A stretch of 64,000 nucleotides of DNA, taken from Gemmatimonadota bacterium (GTDB taxonomy: Bacteria > Gemmatimonadota > Gemmatimonadetes > Longimicrobiales > Gaopeijiaceae). This document shows, one piece after another, positions 19,970 to 34,004 of this stretch (positions are counted from its first letter, which is position 1; each line of letters begins with the position of its first letter). The stretch spans positions 1 through 64,000 of the forward strand of contig JAUIEJ010000007.1 of the NCBI GenBank assembly GCA_030428885.1, in the 5' to 3' direction. The notes under the pieces are model-generated. The model saw only the letters and a program-made list of their open reading frames with translations, did not search any database and was not told the origin of the DNA. A program made the position numbers and the translations under genes.

Positions 19970-20067
19970 GAGGAACTCCGTGAGGTGAGGGGCGAGACTG
20001 GGCTCCACTGGAAGAGAGTCCCAAGCTCGCCGAAAGGATTCACCCCCACCCGCCGGGACCTGGATAC

Positions 20068-20225: not shown

Positions 20226-20231
20226 TGAACA

Positions 20232-20240
20232 AGGATAGCA
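20232..20240 (-). promoter_or_regulatory. Extended -10-like element
   Basis: Minus-strand TGCTATCCT matches the extended -10 form TGnTATnnT. The position 17 bases upstream (20255-20260) shows CACCCG, which is not a -35 box, so activity would rely on the extended -10. About 80 bases further upstream, just before the ilvA stop, is an AT-rich patch (20310-20340) unusual for this window. Confidence 0.3.
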
Positions 20241-20339
20241 GGGGAGGCGTGCCGCGGGTGTCGGGACACCCTCCCCCGGGTAGGGGGGTGATCGCCCGCA
20301 GCTCCTGTGGGGATATCTACCTACGCATATATCCGGATA

Positions 20340-21584
20340 TCAGGTGTATTCCTCCACCACCAGCCCTTCGCCCTCCAGCCCCGCCACCAGGGCGTGGACG
20401 TGGGCCTGGCCCCGTGTCTCCAGCGTGAAGACGATCTCCACGTCGCCCACCGAGATGTCGGCGAAGCCCCGGCGATGGGAGGTCTCCAGGACGTTGGCAC
20501 CCCGCTCCGCCACCATGCGGGTGAGTCGAGCCAGCGACCCGGGAAGGTCCGGCACCTTCACCAGGAGCCGGACGAGGCGACCGTCGGCCACCAGGCCCCG
20601 ATCGATGATGCGCGACACCATGTTGACGTCGATGTTGCCGCCGGAGATCACCAGGACGATCCGCTGGCCCGGTCGGGCGCCCACGGCGCCCCGGGTGAGG
20701 GCGGCGAGTCCCACGGCCCCCGCCCCCTCCACCACGCTCTTCTGCCGCTCCAGGAGCTGGAGCACCGCGCTGGCGATCTCCTCTTCCGACACGGTCACCA
20801 GATCGTCGACCAACGCCTCCACCATGGGAAACGTGCAGTCTCCCACCCGCTTGGTGGCGATGCCGTCGGCCAGGGTGCGGGAACTGGTGATCTTCACGAT
20901 CTCCCCCGCATCCCGGGACGCCCGGGCCGAGGGGGCGGCATCGGCCTCCACCCCCACGATGCGCACGTGGGGAGCCCGGCTCTTCACGGCCAGGGCGATG
21001 CCCGAGATCATGCCGCCCCCACCCACGGGCACCACGATGACGTCGACCTCGGGCACCTGCTCCAGAATCTCGAGACCGATGGAACCCTGCCCGGCGATGA
21101 CCTGGGGATCGTCGAAGGGGTGGATCATGACCAACCCCTCGTCCGCCACCAATCGGCGCGCTTCCACCGCCGAGTCGTCCAGGACCTCGCCGAGTTGGAC
21201 CACCCGGGCCCCGTATCCCTCGGTGTTGGACACCTTGATCAGGGGCGCCGTCTCGGGCATCACCACGGTGCACGGGATGCCGAGGCGGGACGCGTGGAAC
21301 GCCACGGCCTGGGCGTGGTTGCCGGCGCTCGCCGTGACCACGCCCCGGGCCCGCTCCTCGTCGGTGAGATGGAGCATGCGATTCAGCGAACCCCGGTCCT
21401 TGAACGAACCGGTGCGCTGAAGATTCTCGAGCTTCAGGTGCAGGGGCCCGGGGGCCACGTCGTGGAAGGCCGGGGCCCGGGGGCACGGCGTGAGCACCAC
21501 GTGGGGCTCGATGCGCCTCCGTGCGTCGTCGATCTCACCCGGAGCCACCGGGAGGCCCGGCGGCACCACCGACGGCGCGGTCAT
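20340..21584 (-). CDS. ilvA: Threonine ammonia-lyase with C-terminal ACT-like domain
   Basis: 414 residues; the ATG at 21584 overlaps the upstream stop as ATGA. PLP lysine in GSFKDRGSLN near residue 60, ASAGNHAQAVA substrate loop, and the phosphate-binding VPVGGGGMISGIA near residue 180. The last 75 residues (LVRLLVKVPDLPGSLARL onward) form an ACT-like regulatory domain, typical of single-ACT threonine dehydratases. It makes 2-oxobutyrate from threonine, for isoleucine synthesis or threonine breakdown; with one ACT copy either is possible. It competes for threonine with the tdh/kbl route in this window. Confidence 0.92.
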   Translation of the reverse strand: MTAPSVVPPGLPVAPGEIDDARRRIEPHVVLTPCPRAPAFHDVAPGPLHLKLENLQRTGSFKDRGSLNRMLHLTDEERARGVVTASAGNHAQAVAFHASRLGIPCTVVMPETAPLIKVSNTEGYGARVVQLGEVLDDSAVEARRLVADEGLVMIHPFDDPQVIAGQGSIGLEILEQVPEVDVIVVPVGGGGMISGIALAVKSRAPHVRIVGVEADAAPSARASRDAGEIVKITSSRTLADGIATKRVGDCTFPMVEALVDDLVTVSEEEIASAVLQLLERQKSVVEGAGAVGLAALTRGAVGARPGQRIVLVISGGNIDVNMVSRIIDRGLVADGRLVRLLVKVPDLPGSLARLTRMVAERGANVLETSHRRGFADISVGDVEIVFTLETRGQAHVHALVAGLEGEGLVVEEYT

Positions 21585-21991
21585 TCCGTGGGACGGTAGA
21601 TGCCGAGGTGGAGGGGCGGGTCGACGTGGACCTTGAAGTGCAGGCGGTTCTCGCCCTCCTGCACCACCGTCCGGGTGGCCTGCCGGGTCTTGGGGTAGTT
21701 GGAGCCCTGCTGATTCTCCACCACCACCAGGTCGCCCTCCTGGATCCCGGCCATGATCTCGTCGATCCGGGCCTCCAGGTCGGCCAGCACCGCCTGCTCC
21801 ACCTCGTCGTGAACGTCCCCCTCGGCCTCGGCCGCCAGGGTGTGATCCTGGACCTTGGTGTGGGACGACTCGAACTCGTCCCAATCCAGCGACGCTTCGT
21901 GGTCCCGGCGGAAGGCGATCTCGTTGAGGGCCTTGCTGTCGAAGTTCAGCTCCACGCTCTGGAGGCGGGAGCCGTAACGGCGCATGAGCAT
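21581..21991 (-). CDS. Conserved-looking hypothetical protein
   Basis: 136 residues, starting at ATG 21991 or the ATG two codons later; no clear ribosome site. The sequence is acidic and soluble, with a probable helical stretch (about 60-85) and a C-terminal strand-rich segment containing GDLVVVENQQGSNYPKTRQA. I recognise no family. It sits between the DEAD-box helicase (22 bases upstream) and ilvA (ATGA overlap), so it is co-translated with ilvA. Function unknown. Confidence 0.65.
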   Translation of the reverse strand: MLMRRYGSRLQSVELNFDSKALNEIAFRRDHEASLDWDEFESSHTKVQDHTLAAEAEGDVHDEVEQAVLADLEARIDEIMAGIQEGDLVVVENQQGSNYPKTRQATRTVVQEGENRLHFKVHVDPPLHLGIYRPTE

Positions 21992-22013
21992 CGTGACGGT
22001 GGGGAGAGGAGGG

Positions 22014-23291
22014 TCAGGAGTGCTTCAGGAGCTCGGCGAGCTCTTCGGGGCTCAACTCGGCGCCCAATCTGGAGCCCATACCCCGGGGGGCCCGGGAGTG
22101 CCGTCCCCGGGCGCCGCCGCCCGATGTCCGCTCGGCCTTCGGCGTCCCGGCATAGTCGAACTCCGGAAGGTGCTCCCGCTCCAGAGGCCGGCCCAGATGG
22201 TGCTCCAGGCTCTTCACGTGCCCCAGGTCGCCCGCGGCGACGAAGGTCACCGCGGTGCCGTCGGCTCCCGCCCGTCCCGTGCGGCCGATGCGGTGCACGT
22301 AGTCTTCCGGATCCAGGGGCACGTCGTAGTTCACCACGTGGGTGATGCCCTCCACGTCCAGGCCCCGCTGGGCGATGTCCGTGGCCACCAGCACCCGCAC
22401 CTTCCCCTCGGCGAACCGATCCAGGGCCCGGGTGCGCTCCTTCATGCCCCGGTCCGAGTGCATGGCGTCGGTCCGGATTCCCTCCCGCTCCAGACGGGCC
22501 TCCAGCACGTTGGCGCCGGCTTTGGTCCGGGTGAAGACCAGCACCTGGTCCCATCCCTCGCCCTGGAGCAGGTGGAGCAGGAGGTCGGGCTTCTTCTCGG
22601 GCTTGACCGAGTAGGCGATTTCCACGATCCCGCTGGCGGTGGTCCCCGACGGCGCCGCCTCCACCCAGGCGGGGTCGTTGGTGAGCCGAAGCGCCAGGTC
22701 GTGCACGCCGTGGGGCATGGTGGCGCTGAACAGCATGGTGCGGTGCCCGCCCTTCTTCAGTCCCCGCATGACGTCTTCGATCTGGGGCCGGAAGCCCATG
22801 TCGAGCATGCGATCCGCTTCATCCAGGATGAAGAAGCGGATGTTGGACAGATCGACCTTGCCCGAGCGCATGTGGTCGATGAATCGCCCGGGCGTCGCGG
22901 CGATGACCTCGAACCCCTGGGACAGGGCCTCGAGCTGGGGACCGTAGCTCACCCCGCCGTAGATCGACGCCGTGCGGATCGACGTCCCCCGCGACAGGGC
23001 CGCGGCGTCGTCGCACACCTGCTGGGCCAGCTCCCGGGTGGGGGCCAGGACCAGAACCTGGAGTCCCCCGCCGGCAGACACCTGCTCCAGCGCCGGGATC
23101 ATGAAGGCGCCGGTCTTGCCCGTCCCCGTCTGGGCGATGCCCACCACGTCCTGCCCCGCCAGCGCAGGCGGAATCGCCTTGACCTGGATGGGCGTGGGCC
23201 GACTCCAACCCAGGGCCTCCACGGCCGCGAGGGAGGGCTCGGACAGGCCGAGTTCTGCGAAGGACTTCTCGGTGGTTTCAGGTGCGGACAC
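22014..23291 (-). CDS. DEAD-box ATP-dependent RNA helicase (RhlE-like)
   Basis: 425 residues with every helicase motif intact: Q motif (RPTPIQ), motif I AQTGTGKT, Ia PTRELAQQ, Ib TPGR, II DEAD, III SAT, IV VFTRTK, V ATDIAQRGLD, VI HRIGRTGR. The C-terminal tail is short and basic. It unwinds RNA duplexes in ribosome assembly or mRNA decay. It is the intact counterpart of the motif-less paralogue at 27029-28627. Divergent from the tyrosine phosphatase gene across an 80-base spacer. Confidence 0.96.
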   Translation of the reverse strand: MSAPETTEKSFAELGLSEPSLAAVEALGWSRPTPIQVKAIPPALAGQDVVGIAQTGTGKTGAFMIPALEQVSAGGGLQVLVLAPTRELAQQVCDDAAALSRGTSIRTASIYGGVSYGPQLEALSQGFEVIAATPGRFIDHMRSGKVDLSNIRFFILDEADRMLDMGFRPQIEDVMRGLKKGGHRTMLFSATMPHGVHDLALRLTNDPAWVEAAPSGTTASGIVEIAYSVKPEKKPDLLLHLLQGEGWDQVLVFTRTKAGANVLEARLEREGIRTDAMHSDRGMKERTRALDRFAEGKVRVLVATDIAQRGLDVEGITHVVNYDVPLDPEDYVHRIGRTGRAGADGTAVTFVAAGDLGHVKSLEHHLGRPLEREHLPEFDYAGTPKAERTSGGGARGRHSRAPRGMGSRLGAELSPEELAELLKHS

Positions 23292-23371
23292 GTCGGGGAT
23301 ACTCCGGGATTCGGTCGGTTCGTAGAGCCGAAAGGTAGGAACGCGGGCGACGGAAACATAGCTTCGGGTCC

Positions 23372-23872
23372 ATGGACTCCTCCCCGCTCCCTCCGGACAC
23401 CGTCTCGGTGTTGTTCGTCTGCCTGGGCAATATCTGCCGCTCTCCCCTGGCCGAGGGCGTGTTTCGCCACCGGGTCGAATCCGCGGGTCTCGGGGACCGG
23501 ATCCGCATCGATTCGGCCGGCACGGGAGGGTGGCACGTGGGCGATCCGCCCGACCCCCGATCCCGGGACGTGGCGGCGGCCCACGGGGTGTCCCTGGACG
23601 GTCAGAGCGCCCGCAGGGTCGCGCCGGACGACTTCCGCACGTGGGACTGGATCGTGGCCATGGACCGATCCAACCTGGAGGATCTCACCCGGCTTCAGGA
23701 GCGCCACGGCGGCGACGCCACCCTCGTCCTGTTGCGGGACTTCGACCCGGATCCGGGCGACGGGGAAGTCCCCGACCCCTACTACGGAGGCCCGGGGGGA
23801 TTCGACCGGGTCTTCGAGATGGTGGACCGCTCCTGCGCCGCCCTCCTGGAGCGGATCGCCGAGGGCGCGTGA
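23372..23872 (+). CDS. Low-molecular-weight protein-tyrosine phosphatase
   Basis: 166 residues. The P-loop FVCLGNICRS (C-X5-R-S) lies at about residues 15-24 after a 12-residue N-terminal extension, and the general-acid Asp is in DPYYGG near residue 135. The fold and length match family members such as Wzb and PtpA. It dephosphorylates phosphotyrosine in the cytosol. Its stop overlaps the next start as GTGA, so the two are co-translated; the phosphatase/kinase-like pairing is common in bacteria. Confidence 0.93.
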   Translation: MDSSPLPPDTVSVLFVCLGNICRSPLAEGVFRHRVESAGLGDRIRIDSAGTGGWHVGDPPDPRSRDVAAAHGVSLDGQSARRVAPDDFRTWDWIVAMDRSNLEDLTRLQERHGGDATLVLLRDFDPDPGDGEVPDPYYGGPGGFDRVFEMVDRSCAALLERIAEGA

Positions 23873-24774
23873 CCCTTCCCGAGGCCGTGGCCCGGGCCCT
23901 GGTCCGGGACGTCGACGGGGTGGGGAGGATCGAGGGTGCCCGCGCCCTGGGGGGAGGGTGCATTCACGCCGCGGCCCGGGTCGACACCGATGGGGGACCC
24001 CTCTTCTGCAAGTGGAACCACGGCGACGCCGGGGCCGCCTTCGGCGCCGAGGCCCGGGGCCTGGACGACCTACGGCGGGCCGCCGGGGACGGCGGCCTCC
24101 GCATCCCCGACGTCCGGGGCTGGCGAGACGCCACGGAGGGAACCCCGGGATGGCTTGCCCTGGAGTACCTGCCCCCGTCCCCGCCGGCGCCGGACTACGA
24201 ACGGCGCCTGGGACGAGGGCTCGCCGCCCTCCACTCCGCTCCCGTGGCGGGGTGGGGCGGCTCGGAGCCGAACCGGATCGGCTCCCTCCTCCAGGTGAAC
24301 CCCTCCCGGGAGTCGTGGGCCGTCTTCTGGCGCGAAGCGCGCCTGGAGCCCCAGCTCCGCCTCGCCGAGGAGGCGGGCCGTCTCGACCCCCGGGCCCGAC
24401 GACTCCTGGACGGGGCCCTGGACACCGCCGCGGAACTCCTGGCCCCGGTGGAGCACGACGGACCGTCCCAGCTCCACGGCGACCTGTGGGCGGGCAACGT
24501 CCACGCCGGTCCCCACGGTGGACCGGTGCTGGTGGACCCGGCGGCCTACCGGGGGCACCGGGAAGTCGATCTGGCCATGGCCGACCTGTTCGGCGGCCTT
24601 CCCGCCGGGGCCCGGGCGGCCTACGAGGAGGTGCGCCCCCTGGTGCCGGGATACGCCGGGCGCCGCCCCCTGTACCAGCTCTACTACCTGCTGGTCCACG
24701 TCAACCTGTTCGGGGCCGGCTACCTGGCCTCCACCGTCGACGCGGCGCGACGGATCGTGGCGTCCCGGTCCTGA
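23869..24774 (+). CDS. Fructosamine kinase family protein
   Basis: 301 residues from the GTG at 23869, coupled to the phosphatase gene. The N-terminal lobe has LGGGCIHAAARV and the lysine in FCKWN; the C-terminal lobe has LHGDLWAGNV (catalytic Asp), LVDPAAYRGHREVDLAM (the DPA metal-binding variant) and the closing YQLYYLLVHVNLFG. These are hallmarks of fructosamine-3-kinase/ketosamine-3-kinase proteins, which repair glycated amines by phosphorylation. Together with the LMW phosphatase this may be a glycation-repair pair. That role is inferred. Confidence 0.9.
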   Translation: MTLPEAVARALVRDVDGVGRIEGARALGGGCIHAAARVDTDGGPLFCKWNHGDAGAAFGAEARGLDDLRRAAGDGGLRIPDVRGWRDATEGTPGWLALEYLPPSPPAPDYERRLGRGLAALHSAPVAGWGGSEPNRIGSLLQVNPSRESWAVFWREARLEPQLRLAEEAGRLDPRARRLLDGALDTAAELLAPVEHDGPSQLHGDLWAGNVHAGPHGGPVLVDPAAYRGHREVDLAMADLFGGLPAGARAAYEEVRPLVPGYAGRRPLYQLYYLLVHVNLFGAGYLASTVDAARRIVASRS

Positions 24775-24784
24775 CGGTCCGGAC

Positions 24785-25966
24785 CTACCCCACGAGGGCG
24801 GCGATGCGCCGTACGGCTTCCTCGATCTGGGCGTCCGACGCGGCGAAGCTCATGCGGGCGAATTCGGGCGCTCCGAAGGCCTCGCCGGGCACCACGGCCA
24901 CCCCGGCCTCGTTCAGGATCCACGAACACACGGCCCCCGCCGACTCCCGCCCCTCGGCGAAGAGGGAGTCCACGCGGAAGAACAGGTAGAAGGCCCCCTC
25001 CGGCCGCAGGTACGACAGGCCCGGGAGCTTCTCGTCGAAGAGCCGCACCACCAGGTCGCGCCGCCGGTGGAACGCGTCCCGCATGCGCGCCACGTCTTCC
25101 CGGGTCCGCCCCACGTCGGTGTAGGCCGCCAGCGCCGCCATCTGGGAGGGGGTGGCGGCGTTGGAGGTCATGTGGCTCTGCACCGCCGAGAAGGTCGAGG
25201 CCAGCTCGGGTGTGGTCACCGAGAAGCCCACCCGCCAGCCGGTCATGGCGAACGACTTCGACGCGCCGTCGATGAGCACCTGGGGCCCGAGGGAGGTGGG
25301 CGACAGATCCCGGATACCCGGCGCCTCGCCCCCCTCGCCGAAGTAGATGTGCCGGTAGATCTCGTCGGAGATCAGCCACACTCCCCGGTCCCGGGCCCAC
25401 TCGGCCACGGCCCGGAGTTCGTCCAGGGAATAGACCACGCCGGTGGGATTGCACGGCGAACTGAAGATGAGCCCCCGGGTGGCCGGGGTGGCCACGGCCT
25501 CCAGCTCGTCGGGGGTGAGCCGGAAGTCCCTCTCCTCGGCGCCGCGAGCGAACACCGGGTTCGCCCGGGCCAGACCCACGATCTCCGGGTAGCTGGTCCA
25601 GTACGGCGTGGCGATGAGCACGTCGTCTCCGGGCCCGAAGAGGCTGAAACAGGCGTTGAAGAGCGACTGCTTCGCCCCCGACGACACCACCACCCCCGCG
25701 GGGTCCACGACCCGATCCCCGGTGGAGAGGAACCGGGCGATGGCGGCGCGGAGCTCGGGGAGGCCCGGGCTCGGCGTGTAGCGGGTGCGGCCCTCCCGGA
25801 TCCCCTGCATCGCCGCATCGGAGATCCACCCCGGGGTGTCGAAGTCCGGTTCGCCGGTGGAGAGGTTGAGGATGTCGCGCCCCTCGGCCATGAGCCGCTT
25901 GGCCAGCGAACTGACGGCGATGGTGGCGGAGGGCTGGATCGAGGCGACGTTGGGACTGAGATCCAT
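24785..25966 (-). CDS. PLP-dependent aspartate aminotransferase family protein
   Basis: 393 residues, class I/II aminotransferase. Visible motifs: NLSTGEPDFDTP, YTPSPGLPELR, SPCNPTG, the Tyr in DEIYRHIYF, the PLP lysine in GASKSFAMTGWRVGF, and the C-terminal Arg in FARMSFA. Closest in pattern to thermostable-type aspartate/prephenate aminotransferases (AspC/AroAT-Ib). Substrate cannot be set from sequence alone. Convergent with the upstream kinase gene with a 10-base gap; divergent from 26111. Confidence 0.92.
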   Translation of the reverse strand: MDLSPNVASIQPSATIAVSSLAKRLMAEGRDILNLSTGEPDFDTPGWISDAAMQGIREGRTRYTPSPGLPELRAAIARFLSTGDRVVDPAGVVVSSGAKQSLFNACFSLFGPGDDVLIATPYWTSYPEIVGLARANPVFARGAEERDFRLTPDELEAVATPATRGLIFSSPCNPTGVVYSLDELRAVAEWARDRGVWLISDEIYRHIYFGEGGEAPGIRDLSPTSLGPQVLIDGASKSFAMTGWRVGFSVTTPELASTFSAVQSHMTSNAATPSQMAALAAYTDVGRTREDVARMRDAFHRRRDLVVRLFDEKLPGLSYLRPEGAFYLFFRVDSLFAEGRESAGAVCSWILNEAGVAVVPGEAFGAPEFARMSFAASDAQIEEAVRRIAALVG

Positions 25967-26110
25967 GGGTGGACCCTTCCTGGGGGAAGCCGGCGAGGCC
26001 CGTGGGGCGGGGCGCGAGGGTCGGCAATATCAATGGGCGCCGGAGTCGGATCAAGGCGACGACCCGGGGAGCCGTTGCCCCGGGTCCGAGATCCGGACAC
26101 ATTCCGCCCC

Positions 26111-26689
26111 ATGCCTGGACCGATCCTCCGCCTCCATTACGACTTCGTGGATCCGGGATCGTTCCTGATGCAGCGACGGATTCGGGCCCTTCGACCCGAC
26201 TGCGTCCTGGCGGGATTCGAGCTGCGCCCTCCCCCCGAACCCCTGGTGGACCCGACGGACCCCGCCTGGGTGTCGTGGTGGAACGCCGCGGAGGACGGGC
26301 TGCGGGAGGCGGGGCTGAAGCCCGCCCGCCCGGTTCTGGTGCCGTGGTCCCGCAAGGCCCACGAACTGGTGCATCACGCCGCGAACCTGGGCGGCGACGC
26401 CGAACGGGTGGAGGGCCTCCGCACCCGCATCTTCCGAGCCTGGCTCGAAAGCGGCGACGACATCGGACGCATCGACGTTCTGGTGCCCCTGGCCGAAGCG
26501 GAGGGGTTCGACCGCACCGAGACGCGGGCCGTCCTGGACGTGGACCGCTGGCGGAGCGCGGTGGAGGAGGAGCGGCGTCGGGCGGAGGAGGAGGGCGTAC
26601 GGGGGATCCCCACGCTCCTCCACGGGCGCCGACGCCTGGAAGGACTGCACGACCTGGATACGCTCCGAGCGTTCCTGGGAGACGATTGA
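26111..26689 (+). CDS. DsbA-family thioredoxin-fold protein
   Basis: 192 residues from ATG 26111. It begins LRLHYDFVDPGSFLMQRR, like the HCCA isomerase/DsbA-like superfamily, and ends with a VRGIPTLLHGRRRLEGL segment carrying the cis-proline of that fold. The CxxC redox pair is missing: the position holds DPGS. No signal peptide. A cytosolic glutathione-S-transferase-kappa-like or FrnE-like role is possible; it is unlikely to be a thiol oxidase. Confidence 0.78.
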   Translation: MPGPILRLHYDFVDPGSFLMQRRIRALRPDCVLAGFELRPPPEPLVDPTDPAWVSWWNAAEDGLREAGLKPARPVLVPWSRKAHELVHHAANLGGDAERVEGLRTRIFRAWLESGDDIGRIDVLVPLAEAEGFDRTETRAVLDVDRWRSAVEEERRRAEEEGVRGIPTLLHGRRRLEGLHDLDTLRAFLGDD

Positions 26690-26723
26690 TCCCCGGGACG
26701 CCGGACCCACGACGAACACGACG

Positions 26724-27026
26724 ATGGCTGGTTATCAGAGGAAGACGGCCTTGGGGCCGACGGAGGTCATGGCGCGGGCCGAGGCCCTGCTCCCGGACAT
26801 GTTGGGGGTCTCGCGCACGAAGAGCTCGGGACACTCGTCCACCTGGACGGGGGAGGAGGGCGTGGTGACGGTCACTGCCCACCGCCACGGGCCCTACACC
26901 GACGTGGTGGCCCAGACCGACCGCCTCCGCACCTCCCGGATGGACTACGAGGTCCAGAAATTCCTCAACCGGCTACCCTACGAACCCGGCGACCGGGGTG
27001 GCCCCGGAACCGGCGAGCCGAGCTGA
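26724..27026 (+). CDS. Small hypothetical protein before the pseudo-helicase
   Basis: 100 residues. Alternating charged and hydrophobic stretches suggest a compact alpha/beta fold (VMARAEALLPDMLG helix; EEGVVTVTAHRHG strand; TDVVAQTD). No motif recognised. It stops two bases before the start of the 27029 gene, so the two are co-translated and probably act together. The last 12 residues are Gly/Pro-rich. Confidence 0.65.
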   Translation: MAGYQRKTALGPTEVMARAEALLPDMLGVSRTKSSGHSSTWTGEEGVVTVTAHRHGPYTDVVAQTDRLRTSRMDYEVQKFLNRLPYEPGDRGGPGTGEPS

Positions 27027-27028
27027 CC

Positions 27029-28627
27029 ATGGATTCGTTCGAAGAACTGCATCTGACCCCCGAGGTCGTCGAGGCCCTGGCCGCCGAGGGGATCGAGCGC
27101 CCCACGGCGCTCCAGGCCGCCGCCGTACCCGTGGTCCAGCGCGGGCACAACCTGGTCGCCGCAGCCGGCCCGGGGGCCGGGGTGCTGGTGGCGGTGGGCG
27201 CCCCCCTCCTCTCCCGCCTCGAGCCGGCGGAGGGGCGCCCCGTGGGCCTGATCCTCACCCCCACCCGGGACCGGGCTCGGGCGCTGGCCGAGGCCCTGGG
27301 CCGCCTGGCCATGGCCACCGGCCACCGCATCGCGGCCCTGGGCGCCCCGTGGGCGCTCCCCGAGCGGGCCTCCGTTCTGGTGGCCACGCCGGGCGATCTC
27401 CTGGAGGGCCTGGCCGACGCCCGGGTGACCCTGGAGGGCGTGGACGCCCTGGTGGTGGACGGCGCCGCGGTGCTGGAGCGTCTGGGGGTCCTGGGAGACA
27501 TCGAGACCGTGGCCGAGGCCCTGCCCGCCGAGGCCCAGCGGATCGTGGTGTCCCTCCCCGTGACCCCGGGCGTCCGGGACTTCGTGGATCGCCACGCCCG
27601 CCGTGCCGTCACCGTCCCCCCCCAGGACGCCGAAGGGGCCGGCGCCACGCCGCCCCGTCGCGGCGCGGTGGCGGTCCGGGTGGTGGCGGGCGAGAAGGAC
27701 GACGAGGCCGCGGCCCTGGCCCACGACCTCCTCACCGACGACGTGCACCACCTGGTGGTCTTCGTGCGCAACGAGGACGTGGCCGCCGACCTGGGCGACC
27801 GCCTCGCCCTCCGGGGCTTCGGAGTGGGCGCCCCCGGCGACGGGGACGCGCCCATCTGGCTGGTGGTGGACGACATGGAGGGTCGCAAGGCCCTGGACGC
27901 CCTGGACGAGGGCCGGGGACACGCCGTGAGCTTCGACGCCCCCGCCGACCCCAACGCCCTGGATCGACGCCACGGCGGCGGCCATGGCGGAACGATCCTG
28001 GCCGAGGCCCGGGAGGCAGCGCACCTCCGGGATGTGGCCGCCCGGACCGGGTACCAACTGGACTTCGAGCCCACCCGCACCGGGCCCCGGGGACCGTCCG
28101 GTTCGCTGAGCGCGCTCCTCGAGGCCGTGGCCGAGGCCGTGGAGGCCCGGGACGTGGAGGCGTACGAGGTGGTGCTGGAGCCTCTCTTCCGGGCACACGG
28201 CCCCGCGGCGGTGGCGGCGGCCACCCTGGCCCTGCTCCGGGCCCGAGCCCCCTCGACCCCCGCCGCCCCGCCGGCGGAGCGGGCCAGTGCCGCCGTGCCG
28301 CCGGGTCCGGCGCCCTTCGCCAAGCTCTTCGTGAGCCTCGGCGCCAAGGACGGAGTCAAGCCCGGCGACCTGGTGGGCGCCATCACCGGCGAAGCGGGCA
28401 TCCAGGGCGACGAGATCGGGCGCATCGAGATCCGGGAGACCTTCTCCCGGGTGGAGGTGGCCCGCCCGGTGGCGGAGCGGGTCATCTCGTCGCTGAACGG
28501 CACCACGGTCCGGGGCCGTTCGGTGCGGGTCGACCTGGATCGGAGCGAACGGGGCGGCGGTGCCCGCCCTCGCGGTGGCCCCCCCCGCGGCCGGACGGGC
28601 GGGGGAGGACGACGCCCCGGCGCCTGA
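27029..28627 (+). CDS. Degenerate DEAD-box-like protein with DbpA RNA-binding domain
   Basis: 532 residues laid out like a DEAD-box helicase but with the ATPase motifs lost. The Q motif survives (ERPTALQ), motif I reads AAGPGAGVL instead of GxGKT, Ia PTRDRARALA, Ib TPGDLLEG, motif II VVDGAAVL instead of DEAD, motif III lacks SAT, and the motif VI region is RRHGGGHGG instead of HRIGRTGR. Residues about 430-505 match the DbpA C-terminal RNA-binding domain (FAKLFVSLG, GDLVGAIT, IGRIEIRETFSRVEV), followed by an Arg/Gly-rich tail. Likely a non-catalytic RNA-binding scaffold, perhaps in ribosome assembly. The frame is intact and long, arguing against a pseudogene. Confidence 0.85.
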   Translation: MDSFEELHLTPEVVEALAAEGIERPTALQAAAVPVVQRGHNLVAAAGPGAGVLVAVGAPLLSRLEPAEGRPVGLILTPTRDRARALAEALGRLAMATGHRIAALGAPWALPERASVLVATPGDLLEGLADARVTLEGVDALVVDGAAVLERLGVLGDIETVAEALPAEAQRIVVSLPVTPGVRDFVDRHARRAVTVPPQDAEGAGATPPRRGAVAVRVVAGEKDDEAAALAHDLLTDDVHHLVVFVRNEDVAADLGDRLALRGFGVGAPGDGDAPIWLVVDDMEGRKALDALDEGRGHAVSFDAPADPNALDRRHGGGHGGTILAEAREAAHLRDVAARTGYQLDFEPTRTGPRGPSGSLSALLEAVAEAVEARDVEAYEVVLEPLFRAHGPAAVAAATLALLRARAPSTPAAPPAERASAAVPPGPAPFAKLFVSLGAKDGVKPGDLVGAITGEAGIQGDEIGRIEIRETFSRVEVARPVAERVISSLNGTTVRGRSVRVDLDRSERGGGARPRGGPPRGRTGGGGRRPGA

Positions 28628-28645
28628 CCCGAACCCCACCGGCCC

Positions 28646-29665
28646 ATGAGCGTCTTCACCCGCCGCTTCCTCTTCGCCTTCGCCGCCTTCGGTGTGCTGA
28701 CGGCGTTCGGGACGGCCGGGTACGTGGTGCTCGAAGGGTGGGCGTTCCGCGACGCCCTCTACATGACGGTGATCACTCTCACCGCCGTGGGTTATTCGGA
28801 GGTCCAGCCCCTCTCGCCCACGGGCCGCATCTTCACCATGGTGCTCCTGGGGGGCGGCATCACCTGGATGGGGATCTGGTTCGCCCTCATCACCTCGCTC
28901 CTGGTGGAGCTCGACCTGACCCACGGCTTCCGGAGACGCCGGCTCATGAAGGAGATCGCCGAACTGGAGGACCACGTCATCGTCTGTGGCGCCGGCCGCA
29001 CCGGGCGTCAGGTCATCCAGGAACTGGACGCCATGAAGGCGCGGTGGATCACGGTGGAACGGGACCCCGCCCGGGTGGAATCCCTGCGCCACGCCCATCC
29101 CGACGGTCTCGTGGTGGAGGGGGACGCCACCCACGACGACGCCCTCCTGGAAGCCGGACTGGAACGGGCGCGGGGCCTCGTCTCCTGCCTGAGCGCCGAC
29201 ACCGACAACCTCTTCGTCTGCCTCTCGGCCCGGGATCTGAAGCCCGATCTCACCATCGTGGCCCGGGCCTACGAGGAGGAGACCATGGACAAGCTCTACC
29301 GGGCCGGCGCCACCCACGTGGTGAGCCCCAACGTGAGCGGAGCGATCCGCATGGCCTCGGTGCTCCTGCGTCCGTCGGTGGTTTCGTTCCTCGACATCGC
29401 CACGAGGTCGTCGGAACTGGCGCTGCGCATGGAGCAGGCGGAGATCCCCGAGAAGAGTCCCCTGGCGGGCCGCACCCTGGCCGAGGCCCGCATTCCCCAG
29501 GAAACGGGGCTCATCGTCATCGCCATGCGGAAGGGCGGCGCCGGCGCCGAGGGGCGCTTCGTGTTCAATCCCGTGGCCGACACCCGCATGGAGCCCGGCG
29601 ACGAACTCATCGTCCTGGGCACCGTCGATCAGATCCGGCTGCTGCGGGAACACGTGGAGCCGTAG
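28646..29665 (+). CDS. Potassium channel with TrkA-N (RCK) domain
   Basis: 339 residues. Two transmembrane helices (about 8-30 and 65-95) flank a pore loop with selectivity filter TLTAVGYSE (GYSE rather than GYGD). A cytosolic Rossmann RCK domain starts with VIVCGAGRTGRQV near residue 112 and includes the NAD-binding acidic residue (VERDP) and GDATHDDALL. A TrkA-C-like domain closes the protein (about 255-335). It would form a tetrameric, ligand-gated K+ channel in the inner membrane. It stands 18 bases after the pseudo-helicase gene. Confidence 0.92.
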   Translation: MSVFTRRFLFAFAAFGVLTAFGTAGYVVLEGWAFRDALYMTVITLTAVGYSEVQPLSPTGRIFTMVLLGGGITWMGIWFALITSLLVELDLTHGFRRRRLMKEIAELEDHVIVCGAGRTGRQVIQELDAMKARWITVERDPARVESLRHAHPDGLVVEGDATHDDALLEAGLERARGLVSCLSADTDNLFVCLSARDLKPDLTIVARAYEEETMDKLYRAGATHVVSPNVSGAIRMASVLLRPSVVSFLDIATRSSELALRMEQAEIPEKSPLAGRTLAEARIPQETGLIVIAMRKGGAGAEGRFVFNPVADTRMEPGDELIVLGTVDQIRLLREHVEP

Positions 29666-29694
29666 CTCCGTCCGACCCCGCGTTCAACGACGCA

Positions 29695-29727
29695 ACGCCC
29701 CGCCGGGACCGGGTCCCGGCGGGGCGT
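29695..29727. terminator. Bidirectional hairpin between convergent genes
   Basis: ACGCCCCGCCGGGACC at 29695-29710 is the exact inverse of 29712-29727, a 16-bp perfect inverted repeat with a one-base centre, 29 bases after the channel stop and 32 bases after the convergent minus-strand gene. No T-run, so it may work as a Rho-independent-like block in both directions or protect 3' ends. Confidence 0.6.
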
Positions 29728-29759
29728 CGTTCGACGTACTTCCGGTACGGCCGGGTCGG

Positions 29760-29960
29760 TCAGACCTCGGCCGTCTTCTCCCGTCGACGGAAGAAGAGCC
29801 GGTACACCACGTAGGCGATGGCCCCCCAGAACAGCACCTTCATCCCCACCATCATCATCCCCGCCACGGCGCCGAGCAGGGGCATCAACAGCGCCGCCAG
29901 CACCTTGAGGAGCACCACACCAAGGACTCCACTCACCGCCATCGCACCGAACCGCATCAT
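29760..29960 (-). CDS. Small two-helix membrane protein
   Basis: 66 residues. A GGAGG five bases before the ATG at 29960 fixes the start; the long upstream extension in the same frame is Arg/Gly/Pro-rich and unlikely to be coding. Two hydrophobic segments cover most of the protein (about 5-30 and 33-55), ending with a basic RLFFRRREK tail that predicts a cytosolic C-terminus. No family recognised. Confidence 0.65.
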   Translation of the reverse strand: MMRFGAMAVSGVLGVVLLKVLAALLMPLLGAVAGMMMVGMKVLFWGAIAYVVYRLFFRRREKTAEV

Positions 29961-30156
29961 ATCGACCTCCGGAAGTTGTCGTCGTGTGCAGGGTCCTACG
30001 CGGGCCGGGCCCCGGAGGTTTCGACGGGTCCCACCATGGCATCGCCCCACCGCTTCGGTCCGGCCCCGTCCGTGAAGACTTGGGGGGCGACCCGTGCCTC
30101 TCCGCCCCACCCCGCTCGACTTCGACCCCACCGCCCGTTTCGGCGACGCACGAGGA

Positions 30157-30177
30157 CCGGTCGGATTCCCCGACCGG
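30157..30177. promoter_or_regulatory. Perfect inverted repeat upstream of 30206 gene
   Basis: CCGGTCGG (30157-30164) and CCGACCGG (30170-30177) flank five bases, 28 bases before the start at 30206 in a 245-base divergent region. It could be an operator or an mRNA 5' hairpin. Nothing else clear was seen in this spacer. Confidence 0.4.
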
Positions 30178-30205
30178 AGCATCGTCCTCCCGTTCCGGAG
30201 GTTTC

Positions 30206-30529
30206 ATGTCCGTTCTCTCCCGCCCGTCGCTTCGCATCGCCCTGCTGGCCTTCCTGGCCCTGGGCGCCACCCTCCTCACGGCCCGGGCCGCGTGGGCCTG
30301 CGAGGCGTACGACGTCTACGACAATCCTCGCCCGTGCACCTTCCTCGAGGAGTACGGCGAGTGCCTCGTGTCGGCCCTCGACGCCCACGAGCAGTGCATG
30401 GAACGCAAGGAGTCGCTCCTGGACGCCGTGCGCTGCCACACCGGGACCCAGGTCGACCTCCTGGTCTGCAACCTGGGCATGCCCCTCGACTTCATCGGAA
30501 AGGTCCTGAACCCCTTCGACGACGACTGA
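30206..30529 (+). CDS. Small secreted Cys-containing protein
   Basis: 107 residues from ATG 30206 with GGAG six bases upstream. A signal peptide (about 1-32) ends ARAAWAC, leaving a mature protein of about 75 residues with six cysteines (counting the one at the cleavage site) spaced as CEAY, PCTF, GECL, QCME, RCHT, VCNL. These could form three disulphides in the periplasm. Strongly acidic C-terminus (FDDD). I do not recognise the family. A hairpin follows the stop. Confidence 0.7.
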   Translation: MSVLSRPSLRIALLAFLALGATLLTARAAWACEAYDVYDNPRPCTFLEEYGECLVSALDAHEQCMERKESLLDAVRCHTGTQVDLLVCNLGMPLDFIGKVLNPFDDD

Positions 30530-30538
30530 GGCGAGACG

Positions 30539-30567
30539 CCCGGCCGCGCCCTCGAGGCGCGGTCGGG
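30539..30567 (+). terminator. Hairpin after the secreted Cys protein
   Basis: CCCGGCCGCGCC (30539-30550) pairs with GGCGCGGTCGGG (30556-30567), 12 bp with one G-T pair and a five-base loop, 10 bases after the stop. No T-run follows; a GC-rich terminator or 3' stabiliser. Confidence 0.5.
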
Positions 30568-30645
30568 CCGTCGTCCCATCCCGCCATTCCCGTGCCTCCA
30601 CCCGCCCACCAGGGTGGAGGATCACCCTGTCGAGGAGACCGAGCC

Positions 30646-31749
30646 GTGCCCACCCCCATGCCCCCCGATCCCTGGGTAGGGGCGCTCCTGCGCCGCCTCC
30701 TGTTCGCCGCCGTCGCCGCCCTGGTCCTGGTCCAGTTCACCCCCCGGTCGTCCACCGGACGTTCGGACGTCCCGACACCCGGCGAAGGCGAGGGCACGGC
30801 CCGGGTCCTCCCCACCGCGCCCCGGACCCTGGATCCCCCCGGGGCGGGCGCGCTCCTGCCTCCCTTCGAAGCCGATGACGTGGAGCACTCCCGGGCCGGC
30901 TGGGTGTTGCTGGACCGAAGCGAGGGCGAGGTCCTGGTGCTGGACCCCACCGGACACCCCACCCGACGGTTTGGGCGCCGGGGACAGGGTCCAGGAGAGC
31001 TGGAACGCCCTCTGGACGTGGCCCTGGCCGACGACGGCACCGTCGCTGTCCTGGACGCGTCCGGGCTCCGCCTCGACCTCTTCCCCACGGTCGGGATCCC
31101 CCGGCGGGTGGCCCTGGCCGCCGACGGATGCGCCGGCACCTTCGGCGACGACGTCGTCCATCACGACGACAGTTGGTGGGTGATCCGACGATGCTTCGAC
31201 GGTCCCAACGCCGATCTCGAGGTGGTACGGGTGCCCCTGGCCGGTCCTCCGGTCCGGGCCGAGCGCCGGGCCCTGACCCGTATGAACACCGACCCCCATC
31301 GGGTGCCGCTGCTGGTGGCCGACGGCGGCGGTCTCTTCGCCGGCAGCAACCTCGCCCCCTGCCTCGACCCGGTGGGCGGCGAGGGTGCTCGCCTCTGCCT
31401 GCCCCAACCAGCCCGGGCCCCCATCCCCGACACCACGTCGGCTCGTCTCTTCGGCGACCTGGGGCGGCGGGCCGCCGCCGTGGGGCTGGATCTGGAGATC
31501 CCCACCCACTACCCGGCCCTCATCGAGGCCCGGAGCCGGCCCGGCGGCCCGGTGATCCGGGCCATTCTCCCCGACGGGTCCGCCGCCTGGGCCGAGGAGG
31601 CCCGGGACACGCTCTGGATCCTGGAGCCCGGGGCCGACGCCCGGGTGGAGCCCGGCCACGACGGGTGGCTCTTCCTCCGGGACGACGGCGCCGGACTCCG
31701 GGTGTGGACCCTGCCTCAGGCCGGGGACGGGGCGGGCGGATCGTCCTGA
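30646..31749 (+). CDS. 6-bladed beta-propeller protein, exported
   Basis: 367 residues. GTG at 30646 has GAGGAG eight bases upstream; an ATG four codons later is the alternative. A single N-terminal hydrophobic helix (about 17-33) anchors or exports it. The first visible blade contains the NHL-like RRGQGPGELERPLDVALADDGTVAVLD pattern (quoted here only as FGRRGQGPGEL). Two Cys pairs (CAGTF/RRCFD and APCLD/RLCLP) could be disulphides. The type is common in Gemmatimonadota and often annotated as a 6-bladed beta-propeller; ligand unknown. Its 3' end overlaps the convergent sigma-54 activator by 34 bases. A related gene is at 50425. Confidence 0.75.
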   Translation: MPTPMPPDPWVGALLRRLLFAAVAALVLVQFTPRSSTGRSDVPTPGEGEGTARVLPTAPRTLDPPGAGALLPPFEADDVEHSRAGWVLLDRSEGEVLVLDPTGHPTRRFGRRGQGPGELERPLDVALADDGTVAVLDASGLRLDLFPTVGIPRRVALAADGCAGTFGDDVVHHDDSWWVIRRCFDGPNADLEVVRVPLAGPPVRAERRALTRMNTDPHRVPLLVADGGGLFAGSNLAPCLDPVGGEGARLCLPQPARAPIPDTTSARLFGDLGRRAAAVGLDLEIPTHYPALIEARSRPGGPVIRAILPDGSAAWAEEARDTLWILEPGADARVEPGHDGWLFLRDDGAGLRVWTLPQAGDGAGGSS

Positions 31750-32555
31750 AGGAGTCCGTCGAGGAGGTCCGGAGCCACCCGGGTTCCCGGCGAGAGGATC
31801 GCCGCAGCCTCCATCACGTGGGCGAGCTGGCGCACGTTTCCGGGCCAGGGATGAGCCTCCAGGCGCTGGCGGGCGACGGGCTTCAGCACGCGCTCCCCCA
31901 GCCCGTGGCGCCGGACGGCGGCGTCCAGGAACCGGCGGGCCAGGGGGGCGATGTCGTCGGGCCGGTCCCGAAGGGGGGGCAGGGTCACTCGCAGGACCGC
32001 GACCCGATGGTAGAGATCGCGGCGGAACCGGCCCCCGGCCCCCTCCCCGGCGAGGGCTCGGCAGGTGGCCGAGAGGAGCCGGAAGTCCACGTCGAACCCC
32101 GCCGAGCCCCCCACGGGGCGGACGTGGCGATCCTCCACCGCCGACAACAGCTTCGCCTGCTGGGCCGGGGGCAGGTCACCGATTTCGTCCAGGAAGAGGG
32201 TCCCCCCCGTGGCGGCGGCCACCAGTCCCGTGCGATCGGCGTGGGCACCGGTGAAGGCGCCCCGGGTGTGGCCGAACAACTCGCTCTCGAACAGCGTCTC
32301 CGGGACCGCGGCACAATTGACGGCGACGAAGGGGCCTTCGGCGCGCCGGCTGGCGGCGTGGAGGTGGCGAGCCAGGAGCGTCTTGCCGGTTCCGGTCTCG
32401 CCCTGGATCAGGACCGAGGCGTCCACCGGGGCCGCCAGTTCGAGGAACCGCCGGACCCGGGTCACGGCCGGACTCCGGCCGAAGAGGGGTGGGAGACTGG
32501 GAAAGGTGGGCACGACGGAGTGTGGCCCCACCGGTGGGGCGGCCCCATGGTCCAT
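31716..32555 (-). CDS. Sigma-54 AAA+ activator lacking a DNA-binding domain
   Basis: 279 residues, essentially only the AAA+ core. Walker A GETGTGKT, the sigma-54 contact loop RGAFTGA, Walker B GGTLFLDEIGDL, sensor I region RLLSATCRAL, the arginine-finger stretch FRRDLYHRVAVLRV, and the lid segment HPWPGNVRQL. The N-terminus has only 25 residues before the core (no receiver, PAS or GAF), and the protein ends soon after the lid with no Fis-type helix-turn-helix. It would have to activate sigma-54 polymerase from solution or with a partner. No rpoN gene is in the window. Confidence 0.88.
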   Translation of the reverse strand: MDHGAAPPVGPHSVVPTFPSLPPLFGRSPAVTRVRRFLELAAPVDASVLIQGETGTGKTLLARHLHAASRRAEGPFVAVNCAAVPETLFESELFGHTRGAFTGAHADRTGLVAAATGGTLFLDEIGDLPPAQQAKLLSAVEDRHVRPVGGSAGFDVDFRLLSATCRALAGEGAGGRFRRDLYHRVAVLRVTLPPLRDRPDDIAPLARRFLDAAVRRHGLGERVLKPVARQRLEAHPWPGNVRQLAHVMEAAAILSPGTRVAPDLLDGLLQDDPPAPSPA

Positions 32556-32571
32556 CCGGTCCCGAGGCGCC

Positions 32572-32787
32572 CTACTTGTACCGGTAGGTCACCCGACCCT
32601 TGCTGAGATCGTACGGCGACATCTCCACCTTCACCCGGTCGCCCTCCAGAACCCGGATGTAGTTCTGCCGCATCTTGCCCGAGAGGTAGGCCAGCACCTC
32701 GTGGCCGTTCTCCAGTTCGACCCGGAAGGTGGCGTTGGGAAGCACCTCGGTCACCGTCCCCTCGATCTCGATGGCGTCCTTTCCCAC
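32572..32787 (-). CDS. infA: Translation initiation factor IF-1
   Basis: 71 residues, the normal length. OB-fold pattern [56 protein letters not shown] and the C-terminal YRYK. It binds the ribosomal A site during initiation. Monocistronic here, upstream of the sigma-54 activator gene by 16 bases on the same strand; not part of a ribosomal protein cluster. Confidence 0.98.
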
Positions 32788-32949
32788 GGGGTCTCCAGGG
32801 TAGAGGGGTGGCTCGAGGCTACTCTAGGACCGCGCGTCCGACGAAATCAACCATTTCCGGTGGGGGGTGCCCGGGGCCGCCCGGTACCCCGATCCGGGAC
32901 CCCACCGACCCCGACTGGTCCCGCGAGCCCGCGGGGTCGATGTTCCCCC

Positions 32950-33165
32950 ATGGCCGACACCTGGACCCGGGAGGAGGAGCGCTCTCTGCGCAGGGCCGTG
33001 GCCGAGGGTATGCCCCTCGTCTGCCCCGTCTGCGACGTGCGCCTCGAAGTGGAGACGGTGGCGCCCCGGCGGGACGTGTCGTACGTGCGCCGACGCCGCT
33101 GGCTCCGGTGCTCCCGGTGCCGTCGTTCCCTGGTGGTGGACGCTCCCCGGGAGGAGGGGGCGTGA
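32950..33165 (+). CDS. Small zinc-ribbon protein
   Basis: 71 residues from ATG 32950. Two CxxC pairs (CPVC near residue 25 and CSRC near residue 54) predict a zinc ribbon with a basic centre (VRRRRWLRC). Its stop overlaps the nudC start as GTGA, so the two are co-translated; since NudC itself binds zinc the pairing may be functional, but that is inference. Family not recognised. Confidence 0.7.
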   Translation: MADTWTREEERSLRRAVAEGMPLVCPVCDVRLEVETVAPRRDVSYVRRRRWLRCSRCRRSLVVDAPREEGA

Positions 33166-34004
33166 CGGCGGCGGCGCGGGGCGCCCCGCGGTGGTGGGTC
33201 TTCCGGGGGCGTCACGTCCTGCTGCGGGAACGATGGACGGCCGACCCCCACGCCGACCCCGACGACCCCCGACCCTCCGGGCCCCTCCCCGATCCCCCCG
33301 GGGGGATTCGCCTGCGCATCGCCGTCCCGGTGGACTCGGGGCTCGCCTCCCCCGACCCGCCCGGCGAAGGCCCCCACGACCCGGCCCAGCTCGTCACGGG
33401 CGAAGAGCCCCCGGCTCCCGAGGGCTACGGGTGGGTCGACCTGCGGGTGGCCGCCGCGTGGCTGGGCGACGACCTCTTCCGGCGGGCCGGGCGGGCGTGG
33501 CAGCTCCTGGAGTGGCATCGCTCCCACCGCTTCTGTGGCGTGTGCGGCAACCCCACCGCCCCGGGGCCCTACGACGCCCTGACCTGCACGGTGTGCGACC
33601 ACCTCCATTTTCCCCGCCTCTCCCCTGCCGTGATCGTCCTGGTCCACGACGGCGACCGGGTGCTCCTGGGGCGGGGTCGGCACCTTCCCGAGGGCATGTA
33701 CTCCACCCTGGCCGGATTCGTGGAGCCCGGGGAATCGCTGGAAGAGGCGGTGCACCGGGAGATCCGTGAGGAGGCCGACGTCACCCTCACCGACCTGCGC
33801 TACTTCGGCAGTCAGCCCTGGCCGTTCCCCCACTCCCTCATGGTGGGCTTCCTGGCGCGCTGGGCCGGGGGCGCCCCCCACCCCGCCGACGGCGAACTGG
33901 AAGCGGTGGAGTGGTTCCGGAAGGACGCCCTTCCCCGGATCCCCGGGCGGGTGTCCATCGCCCGGAGTCTCATCGACGCGTGGCGGGCCGGCGCCGGGAC
34001 GTGA
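33162..34004 (+). CDS. nudC: NAD+ diphosphatase / mRNA de-NADding NUDIX hydrolase
   Basis: 280 residues from a GTG at 33162. A zinc ribbon (FCGVCGN ... LTCTVCDH) precedes the NUDIX domain; the Nudix box is GFVEPGESLEEAVHREIREE and the diagnostic NudC motif SQPWPFPHS follows. It cleaves NADH/NAD+ to NMN and AMP and removes NAD caps from RNA. The N-terminal 110 residues are divergent, as usual in the family. Confidence 0.95.
   Translation: MTAAARGAPRWWVFRGRHVLLRERWTADPHADPDDPRPSGPLPDPPGGIRLRIAVPVDSGLASPDPPGEGPHDPAQLVTGEEPPAPEGYGWVDLRVAAAWLGDDLFRRAGRAWQLLEWHRSHRFCGVCGNPTAPGPYDALTCTVCDHLHFPRLSPAVIVLVHDGDRVLLGRGRHLPEGMYSTLAGFVEPGESLEEAVHREIREEADVTLTDLRYFGSQPWPFPHSLMVGFLARWAGGAPHPADGELEAVEWFRKDALPRIPGRVSIARSLIDAWRAGAGT

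What the first reader, a model, noticed from the sequence alone, without database searches (positions are those of the whole stretch)
27029..28627. DEAD-box-like protein with all ATPase motifs erased but RNA-binding domain kept
Motif I, II, III and VI are replaced (GPGAGVL, DGAA, no SAT, RRHGGGHGG), yet the frame is intact, the DbpA RNA-binding domain is well kept and an RG-rich tail is present. A pseudo-helicase scaffold co-translated with an unknown 100-residue protein has not, to my knowledge, been characterised.
Basis: partly seen in the sequence, partly recalled or inferred. Interest (0 to 1): 0.65.

Follow-up and report, generated by a model that had tools for sequence, protein, structure and literature searches.

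The report
Conserved dead RNA helicase, DeaD-derived
A bacterial protein that looks like an RNA-unwinding enzyme but has lost the parts needed to burn ATP has been kept, with its RNA-gripping end intact, across a large part of the phylum Gemmatimonadota, so it is most likely a working pseudoenzyme and not a dying gene.

Summary
[quoted passage not shown] It is not recent decay: 101 of 101 ORFs (74 genomes) matching the family profile at 400 bits or more lack motif VI and DExD; dN/dS in the genus is 0.16-0.24; all such proteins form one clade (100/100), sister to the phylum's own active DeaD. So it is a pseudo-DeaD (CsdA type), not a pseudo-DbpA, and hairpin-92 binding should not be assumed. 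Constraint is inverted: active DeaD conserves RecA1 more than the RBD; all seven pseudo groups compared do the reverse. "All motifs erased" is too strong: the Q-motif Gln is kept in 69 of 69 proteins of the order plus family f9. The 100-aa partner gene is tightly linked, but three congeners lack it and keep the pseudohelicase. Most likely mechanism (inferred): an ATP-independent, dimeric RNA-binding platform or chaperone, perhaps working with the neighbouring RhlE, the only DEAD-motif helicase found in this genome. New variant of a known kind.

The parts
27029..28627 (+). Pseudo-DeaD: 532-aa DEAD-box-derived pseudohelicase (finding)
   Evidence: ORF; Pfam DEAD + DbpA RBD; only DbpA-domain ORF found in the genome
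27104..27553 (+). RecA1 remnant (residues 26-175); Q motif kept, P-loop GPGAGVL without Lys/Thr, motif II VDGAA
27641..28063 (+). RecA2 remnant (residues 205-345): motif V absent, motif VI replaced by LDRRH; newly fixed residues D250, D254, D257, W277, H315, H332
   Evidence: Helicase_C in 0 of 44 members
28112..28252 (+). Probable DeaD-type dimerization segment (residues 362-408)
   Evidence: PF25399 DeaD_dimer weak here (E 0.63), 22 of 44 family members at E 0.01 or better; profile aligns through CshA to its residue 425
28322..28531 (+). DbpA-type RNA-binding domain (residues 432-501), with the I-G-x-I guanine-contact loop at 463-466
   Evidence: G464 invariant in A1; contact residues from PMC3695512 (passages)
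28544..28624 (+). Basic RG/G-rich tail (residues 506-532), not conserved in all lineages
26724..27026 (+). orf100: conserved 100-aa protein of unknown function, tightly upstream; predicted beta-alpha-beta4-alpha fold, KA1/START-like
26111..26689 (+). DsbA-like thioredoxin-fold gene, upstream in the same run of genes
24785..25966 (-). Class I/II aminotransferase, divergent neighbour; synteny marker shared with the distant families f4 and f5
22014..23291 (-). RhlE-like canonical DEAD-box helicase; only DEAD-motif helicase found in this genome; candidate working partner (inferred)
28646..29665 (+). TrkA-domain potassium channel, downstream; also downstream in family f7

Best explanation
Shown by sequence: an ancient, single-origin pseudoenzyme derived from the DeaD/CsdA RNA helicase of Gemmatimonadota. 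Motif V, motif VI and the catalytic Glu are gone in nearly all members and the Walker A Lys in most lineages, while the RBD and fold-level residues stayed under purifying selection. Inferred: it does not hydrolyse ATP; it binds RNA through a pair of RBDs held together by the DeaD-type dimerization segment and acts as an ATP-independent RNA-binding platform or chaperone on structured, G-rich RNA or pre-rRNA. In genomes like this one, where RhlE is the only DEAD-motif helicase found, it may also bring RNA to RhlE.
For: No motif VI or DExD in 101 of 101 ORFs at 400 bits or more. Catalytic Glu column: 1 of 101 distinct pseudo proteins (L116); Walker A Lys: 10 of 101, all in f3 and f9 (these 101 were chosen by lack of motif VI, so only such other columns are informative). 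Purifying selection, dN/dS 0.160-0.237 in 6 pairs. One clade, 100/100, sister to the phylum's DeaD (joint node 97/89); a tree with the distant pseudo group joined to DeaD is rejected (p-AU 2e-54). RBD 44 of 44, DeaD_dimer 22 of 44, Helicase_C 0 of 44. Constraint inversion, mean pairwise identity RecA1 vs RBD: active DeaD 0.67 vs 0.50; pseudo f1 0.44 vs 0.59, f9 0.63 vs 0.75. Same locus in distant families: divergent aminotransferase nearby in 46/50 f1, 4/8 f2, 7/7 f4, 6/11 f5 genomes. Kept without active DeaD: 25 of 34 f1 genomes have just one DbpA-domain protein. Precedent: in DDX21 the dimerization domain, GUCT and basic tail remodel G-quadruplexes without ATP, and dimerization matters for that (PMC7721647, passages).
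Against: No usable structure: the two-sequence AlphaFold model had pLDDT 40, so fold and dimer are inferred from sequence. The dimer segment is the least conserved part in f1 (0.37), has the highest dN/dS (0.20-0.48), and Pfam sees it in half the members only. In f5 the RBD (0.46) is not more conserved than the dimer segment (0.49). The RG tail is absent or very short in f4, f7 and f9. The Q motif kept at 100% in the order hints at a nucleotide role that a pure platform would not need. f3 and f9 keep a full Walker A, so ATP binding there is not excluded. No RNA-binding, expression or interaction data.
Confidence: 0.5

Rival explanations
1. Adaptor for RhlE: the pseudo-DeaD takes the place of DeaD as partner of the neighbouring RhlE helicase, loading it on rRNA and having no chaperone activity of its own.
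For: An RhlE-like gene lies within about 5 kb, divergent, in 23 of 29 large f1 loci (two of the 23 as partial matches at a locus edge). RhlE is the only DEAD-motif protein among 12 of the 15 PF00270 hits in this genome that were examined; ten others were fetched and none carries DEAD or motif VI. RhlE seldom occurs as sole DEAD-box protein and is thought to cooperate with others in ribosome biogenesis (PMC8190605, passages).
Against: RhlE was not found beside it in the f2, f3, f4, f5, f7 or f9 loci looked at (locus ends limit this). No co-evolution test was made. f1 synteny is generally high, so neighbourhood alone is weak.
Confidence: 0.22
2. Nucleotide- or ligand-gated RNA binder: the old ATP cleft still binds an adenine base or other ligand through the Q motif and newly fixed residues, switching RNA binding by the RBDs.
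For: Q29 65/65 in the order and 4/4 in f9, F4 62/65 in the order, P-loop glycines 65/65, while the Walker A Lys is 0 of 58 in f1+f2 and T79/R80 of motif Ia vary. New near-invariant residues sit at former motif III and VI positions (P177 50/50, H315 48/50 in f1; H332 65/65 in the order).
Against: Q-motif residues may be structural. The Q motif is lost in f4, f5, f6 and f7.
Confidence: 0.14
3. Regulatory (dominant-negative or modulating) heterodimer subunit of active DeaD.
For: Derived from DeaD and keeps a DeaD-type dimerization segment. Most f3 genomes have both.
Against: 25 of 34 f1 genomes, this one included, have only one DbpA-domain protein and keep the pseudohelicase.
Confidence: 0.07
4. 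Pseudogene in decay.
For: Loss of catalytic motifs; long stem branch of 0.79-0.87.
Against: Open frame, dN/dS about 0.16-0.24, one origin, class-wide retention, conserved RBD.
Confidence: 0.01

Closest known systems
DeaD/CsdA, CshA, Hera: dimeric bacterial DEAD-box RNA helicases
   Same: Domain order, dimerization segment, RBD (CshA lacks a DbpA-type RBD); phylogenetic sister is the DeaD of the same phylum
   Different: No Walker A Lys (most), no catalytic Glu, no motif V or VI; constraint moved from core to RBD
Utp25/Def, eukaryotic SSU processome pseudohelicase (PMC9539457, passages)
   Same: DEAD-box-derived pseudohelicase with vestigial motifs and a proposed RNA/cofactor role
   Different: Eukaryotic; reported to keep motif Ia and partial Q, IV, V and VI, whereas V and VI are absent here; no DbpA-type RBD is mentioned in the passages seen; no direct alignment was made here
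Deinococcus radiodurans PriA pseudohelicase (PMC4504706, abstract and outline)
   Same: Bacterial lineage-level loss of ATPase with a binding role kept
   Different: DNA helicase PriA, replication restart; shown by assay, which is missing here
DDX21 C-terminal half: dimerization domain, GUCT/RRM, RG-rich tail (PMC7721647, passages)
   Same: Analogous layout; ATP-independent RNA remodelling by the non-core part
   Different: DDX21 keeps an active helicase core; eukaryotic

Membership tests
Active DEAD-box RNA helicase | Walker A GxGKT | tested here: not met
   GPGAGVL here; Lys 0/50 in f1
Active DEAD-box RNA helicase | Motif II DEAD | tested here: not met
   VDGAA; Glu 0/50 in f1
Active DEAD-box RNA helicase | Motifs III, V and VI | tested here: not met
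   VSLP, no ATDVAARGLD, LDRRHGGGH
Active DEAD-box RNA helicase | RecA-like two-domain fold | tested here: inconclusive
   PF00270 in 44/44, Helicase_C in 0/44; model too poor
DeaD/CsdA lineage | DbpA-type RBD | tested here: met
   44/44
DeaD/CsdA lineage | DeaD dimerization domain | tested here: inconclusive
   22/44 members at E 0.01 or better; window protein E 0.63
DeaD/CsdA lineage | Tree position with DeaD | tested here: met
   Sister to Gemmatimonadota DeaD, joint node 97/89; E. coli DeaD and DbpA outside
DbpA/YxiN | Groups with DbpA | tested here: inconclusive
   E. coli DbpA lies outside, with E. coli DeaD, at an unresolved fork; only one DbpA was in the tree
DbpA/YxiN | Reads loop of 23S hairpin 92 | not testable with these tools
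   Only the shared guanine-contact loop I-G-x-I is seen
Pseudohelicase (criteria in PMC9539457) | Degenerate motifs in a conserved helicase-derived protein | tested here: met
Pseudohelicase (criteria in PMC9539457) | Helicase-like structure | tested here: inconclusive
Pseudohelicase (criteria in PMC9539457) | No ATPase or unwinding in assay | not testable with these tools
   needs bench work

The most novel reading that the evidence does not exclude
A helicase turned, once and early in Gemmatimonadota, into a ligand-gated, ATP-independent RNA chaperone: the adenine-reading Q motif and P-loop glycines stay (in the order), the phosphate-gripping Lys and hydrolysis machinery go, and new fixed residues fill the old cleft and RecA2 face. 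It replaces DeaD and serves as obligate partner of RhlE in genomes with one active DEAD-box helicase.
Probability: 0.15. Interest if true: 0.82.

Novelty: new variant of a known kind. Interest (0 to 1): 0.62.

Why it matters
Pseudohelicases are very rare in print: PMC9539457 (passages) calls Utp25 only the second proposed. Here is a bacterial DEAD-box one with a single origin, about a hundred distinct sequences, a graded loss of motifs across families, and an active sister paralogue. That lets one ask in what order a helicase loses its ATPase parts and what remains useful without ATP. It passes Pfam's DEAD cut-off (41 vs 26 bits), so automatic annotation would probably call it a helicase (inference), and helicase counts for this phylum would be wrong.

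Tried and rejected
Recent decay: rejected. Independent losses in the deep families: a tree joining f4/f5/f6 pseudo proteins with active DeaD is rejected, but long branches are in play and the test may share the model's pull. DbpA origin: not favoured, though NCBIfam's best model is DbpA (138.6 bits, far below its cut-off of 524). Heterodimer with DeaD as general role: weakened. Obligate partnership with orf100: weakened, absent from G001, G003 and G005 by whole-genome search (52 of 58 genomes have it); at the G001 locus no orf100 was found between aminotransferase and pseudohelicase.

Led nowhere: AlphaFold of the pseudohelicase from two sequences (pLDDT 40); PHROGs (none); Rfam in 20000-34000 (none); promoter/terminator scan (none); Pfam and NCBIfam on orf100 (none). 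orf100 alone gave pLDDT 80, with KA1, START/Bet v 1-like and BamC matches: a common fold, no function inferred. Rows for other families rest on profile hits and the loci I fetched, not on all genomes. No match in a genome outside the class was seen in the listed rows, but unlisted rows could not be read, and other phyla were not searched with the profile.

Data handling: the 101 'distinct pseudo proteins' were picked by lack of an HR.GR..R string, score over 150 and length over 350 aa, so their lack of motif VI is by construction; the unbiased count is that (which also happens to be 101, ORFs there, with overlapping loci). Rows dropped: L001, L033 and L034; identical sequences; the partial L095 from A1. 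The active 'DeaD' group of 19 holds one outlier (L145); the 'RhlE' group of 19 appears to hold one Staphylococcus helicase, by the counts. dN/dS by YN00 failed in most pairs.

Full report
What is there. The ORF at 27029-28627 is open for 532 codons and begins 2 nt after the stop of a 100-aa ORF. Pfam gives a DEAD domain (41 bits, 26-175) and a DbpA-type RNA-binding domain (90.3 bits, 432-501), with no Helicase_C.

Relatives. The window lies in a genome of 5.39 Mb, 95.43% complete by the tool's table. A congener contig is public as 'Longimicrobiales bacterium', in phylum Gemmatimonadota by NCBI. Family codes f1-f9 are the tool's; f1 is the window's family, f2 and f3 the same order, the others the same class. 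In the 58 genomes of the 'relatives' set all have some hit, but that includes ordinary helicases; by my reading of that table a pseudo-type hit, fragments included, is present in 56 of 58 and not seen in G011 (contig breaks near orf100) and G036. Fragments were not each checked for motifs. In the window's family, full-length identities to the window protein run from 31 to 80%.

Not decay. Of 178 ORFs that match the family profile in the fetched loci, 101 score 400 bits or more (74 genomes) and none has motif VI or DExD; the best-scoring ordinary helicase is L073 at 339.5. Below 400 bits the two kinds mix: 330-400 bits, n=3, one with motif VI; 200-330, n=37, 18 with it; 150-200, n=16, 7 with it; under 150, n=21, 17 with it. 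dN/dS (NG86) among four congeners is 0.160-0.237 over the whole gene; by domain, in three congeners, RecA1 0.12-0.19, RecA2 remnant 0.11-0.16, dimer segment 0.20-0.48, RBD 0.11-0.13.

Origin. In an 80-row quick tree and a 48-row careful tree the pseudo proteins form one clade (100; 100/100) on a long stem (0.87; 0.79), next to active DeaD proteins of the same phylum (84; 97/89 for the joint node), with E. coli DeaD and DbpA outside. Holding the distant pseudo proteins together with DeaD costs 90.5 log-likelihood units (p-AU 2e-54). Independently of the tree, an aminotransferase homologous to the window's divergent neighbour lies near the gene in 46 of 50 f1, 4 of 8 f2, 2 of 7 f3, 7 of 7 f4 and 6 of 11 f5 genomes, and the potassium channel in 19 of 50 f1 and 10 of 12 f7 genomes (many f1 loci are short, so these are lower bounds). 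None of the f6 or f9 genomes (2 and 5) shows either.

Which motifs went. Walker A Lys: f1 0/50, f2 0/8, f3 7/7, f9 3/4, f7 0/12, f5 0/11, f4 0/7, f6 0/2. Catalytic Glu: 0 in all except 1/12 in f7 (L116, with DEAD in motif II but no Walker A Lys). Motif II Asp: f1 37/50, f2 2/8, f3 7/7, f9 4/4, f7 12/12; none in f5, f4 and f6. Q-motif Gln: f1 50/50, f2 8/8, f3 7/7, f9 4/4; not the common residue in f7, f5, f4, f6. This fits early loss of motifs V and VI and of the Glu, and later loss of the Lys. That order is an inference; no ancestral states were computed. In f1, 52 positions are kept in 47 or more of 50 proteins; several differ from the ordinary consensus, e.g. P177, D250, D254, D257, W277, H315, H332 (H332 65/65 in the order).

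What is kept. Mean pairwise identity inside groups, RecA1 / RecA2 / dimer / RBD: pseudo f1 .44/.43/.37/.59; f2 .49/.40/.58/.71; f3 .65/.54/.69/.76; f9 .63/.43/.70/.75; f7 .41/.34/.48/.61; f5 .36/.34/.49/.46; f4 .37/.34/.42/.50; active DeaD .67/.66/.49/.50. So the RBD exceeds RecA1 in all seven pseudo groups and falls below it in DeaD; the RBD is the highest segment in six of seven, the dimer segment in f5. Pfam on 44 members: DbpA 44, DEAD 44, DeaD_dimer 22, Helicase_C none. The profile aligns to CshA from residue 1 to 425, through its dimerization region. The RBD aligns to E. coli DbpA, to the RBD of entries 2g0c/3moj (YxiN by PMC3695512) and to a DeaD RBD (5b88). The loop that reads a guanine in Hera and YxiN (PMC3695512, passages) is I-G-R-I here, with G464 invariant in 44 rows. 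Hera and YxiN differ otherwise in what they read, so the RNA target cannot be named from this.

Setting. Order in this window: RhlE-like helicase (-), phosphatase-like and kinase-like ORFs (names recalled from sequence, not searched), aminotransferase (-), DsbA-like, orf100, pseudo-DeaD, potassium channel. RhlE is near in 23 of 29 large f1 loci. Of 15 PF00270 hits in this genome I fetched ten besides RhlE and the pseudohelicase; none has a DEAD motif or motif VI; the three weakest were not fetched. orf100 ends within -47 to +62 nt of the pseudohelicase start in 45 of the 50 f1 loci, farther in 3, not found in 2. It is missing genome-wide in G001, G003, G005, G036, G038 and G039 and present in 52 of 58.

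Active DeaD. DbpA-domain hits per genome in f1 (34 genomes): two in 7, one in 25, none in 2 (G011 and G016, fragmented assemblies). In f3 most have two. The pseudohelicase thus persists without DeaD.

Mechanism. Shown: loss of catalytic residues, retention of RBD, selection, single origin. Inferred: no ATPase; dimer; RNA platform or chaperone; possible work with RhlE. Precedents: DDX21's non-core half remodels G-quadruplexes without ATP (PMC7721647, passages); D. radiodurans PriA keeps DNA binding without helicase activity (PMC4504706, abstract); Utp25 is essential without working motifs (PMC9539457, passages).

In print. Searches for 'pseudohelicase', inactive/degenerate DEAD-box with DbpA, Gemmatimonad with DEAD-box, pseudoenzyme with DEAD-box and inactive paralogue/pseudo-helicase listed nothing on a bacterial DEAD-box pseudohelicase of this kind. 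The library holds open-licence PMC papers only. In PMC3071783 (passages) Gemmatimonadetes occurs once, in a table row. Other papers were seen as search listings only.

Noticed in passing
26724-27026: orf100: conserved 100-aa protein, unnamed by Pfam, NCBIfam and PHROGs, better conserved than its neighbour in f1 (57-83% in listed f1 hits); predicted KA1/START-like fold.
   Followed up: partly
22014-23291 (-): RhlE-like helicase appears to be the only DEAD-motif helicase in this 95%-complete genome.
   Followed up: partly
L116 (family f7), locus coordinates 4997-6797 (-): A pseudo-type protein with DEAD in motif II but no Walker A Lys and no motif VI.
   Followed up: no
L126, L128 (f5), L137, L134 (f4): A thymidine kinase gene lies downstream of the pseudohelicase in f4/f5, where f1 and f7 have the potassium channel.
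   Followed up: partly
G036 (family f2): 96%-complete genome without any DbpA-domain hit and without orf100: possible joint loss.
   Followed up: no
27959-27991: New conserved LDRRH block at the former motif VI position in f1 (R314 and H315 48/50 each).
   Followed up: partly
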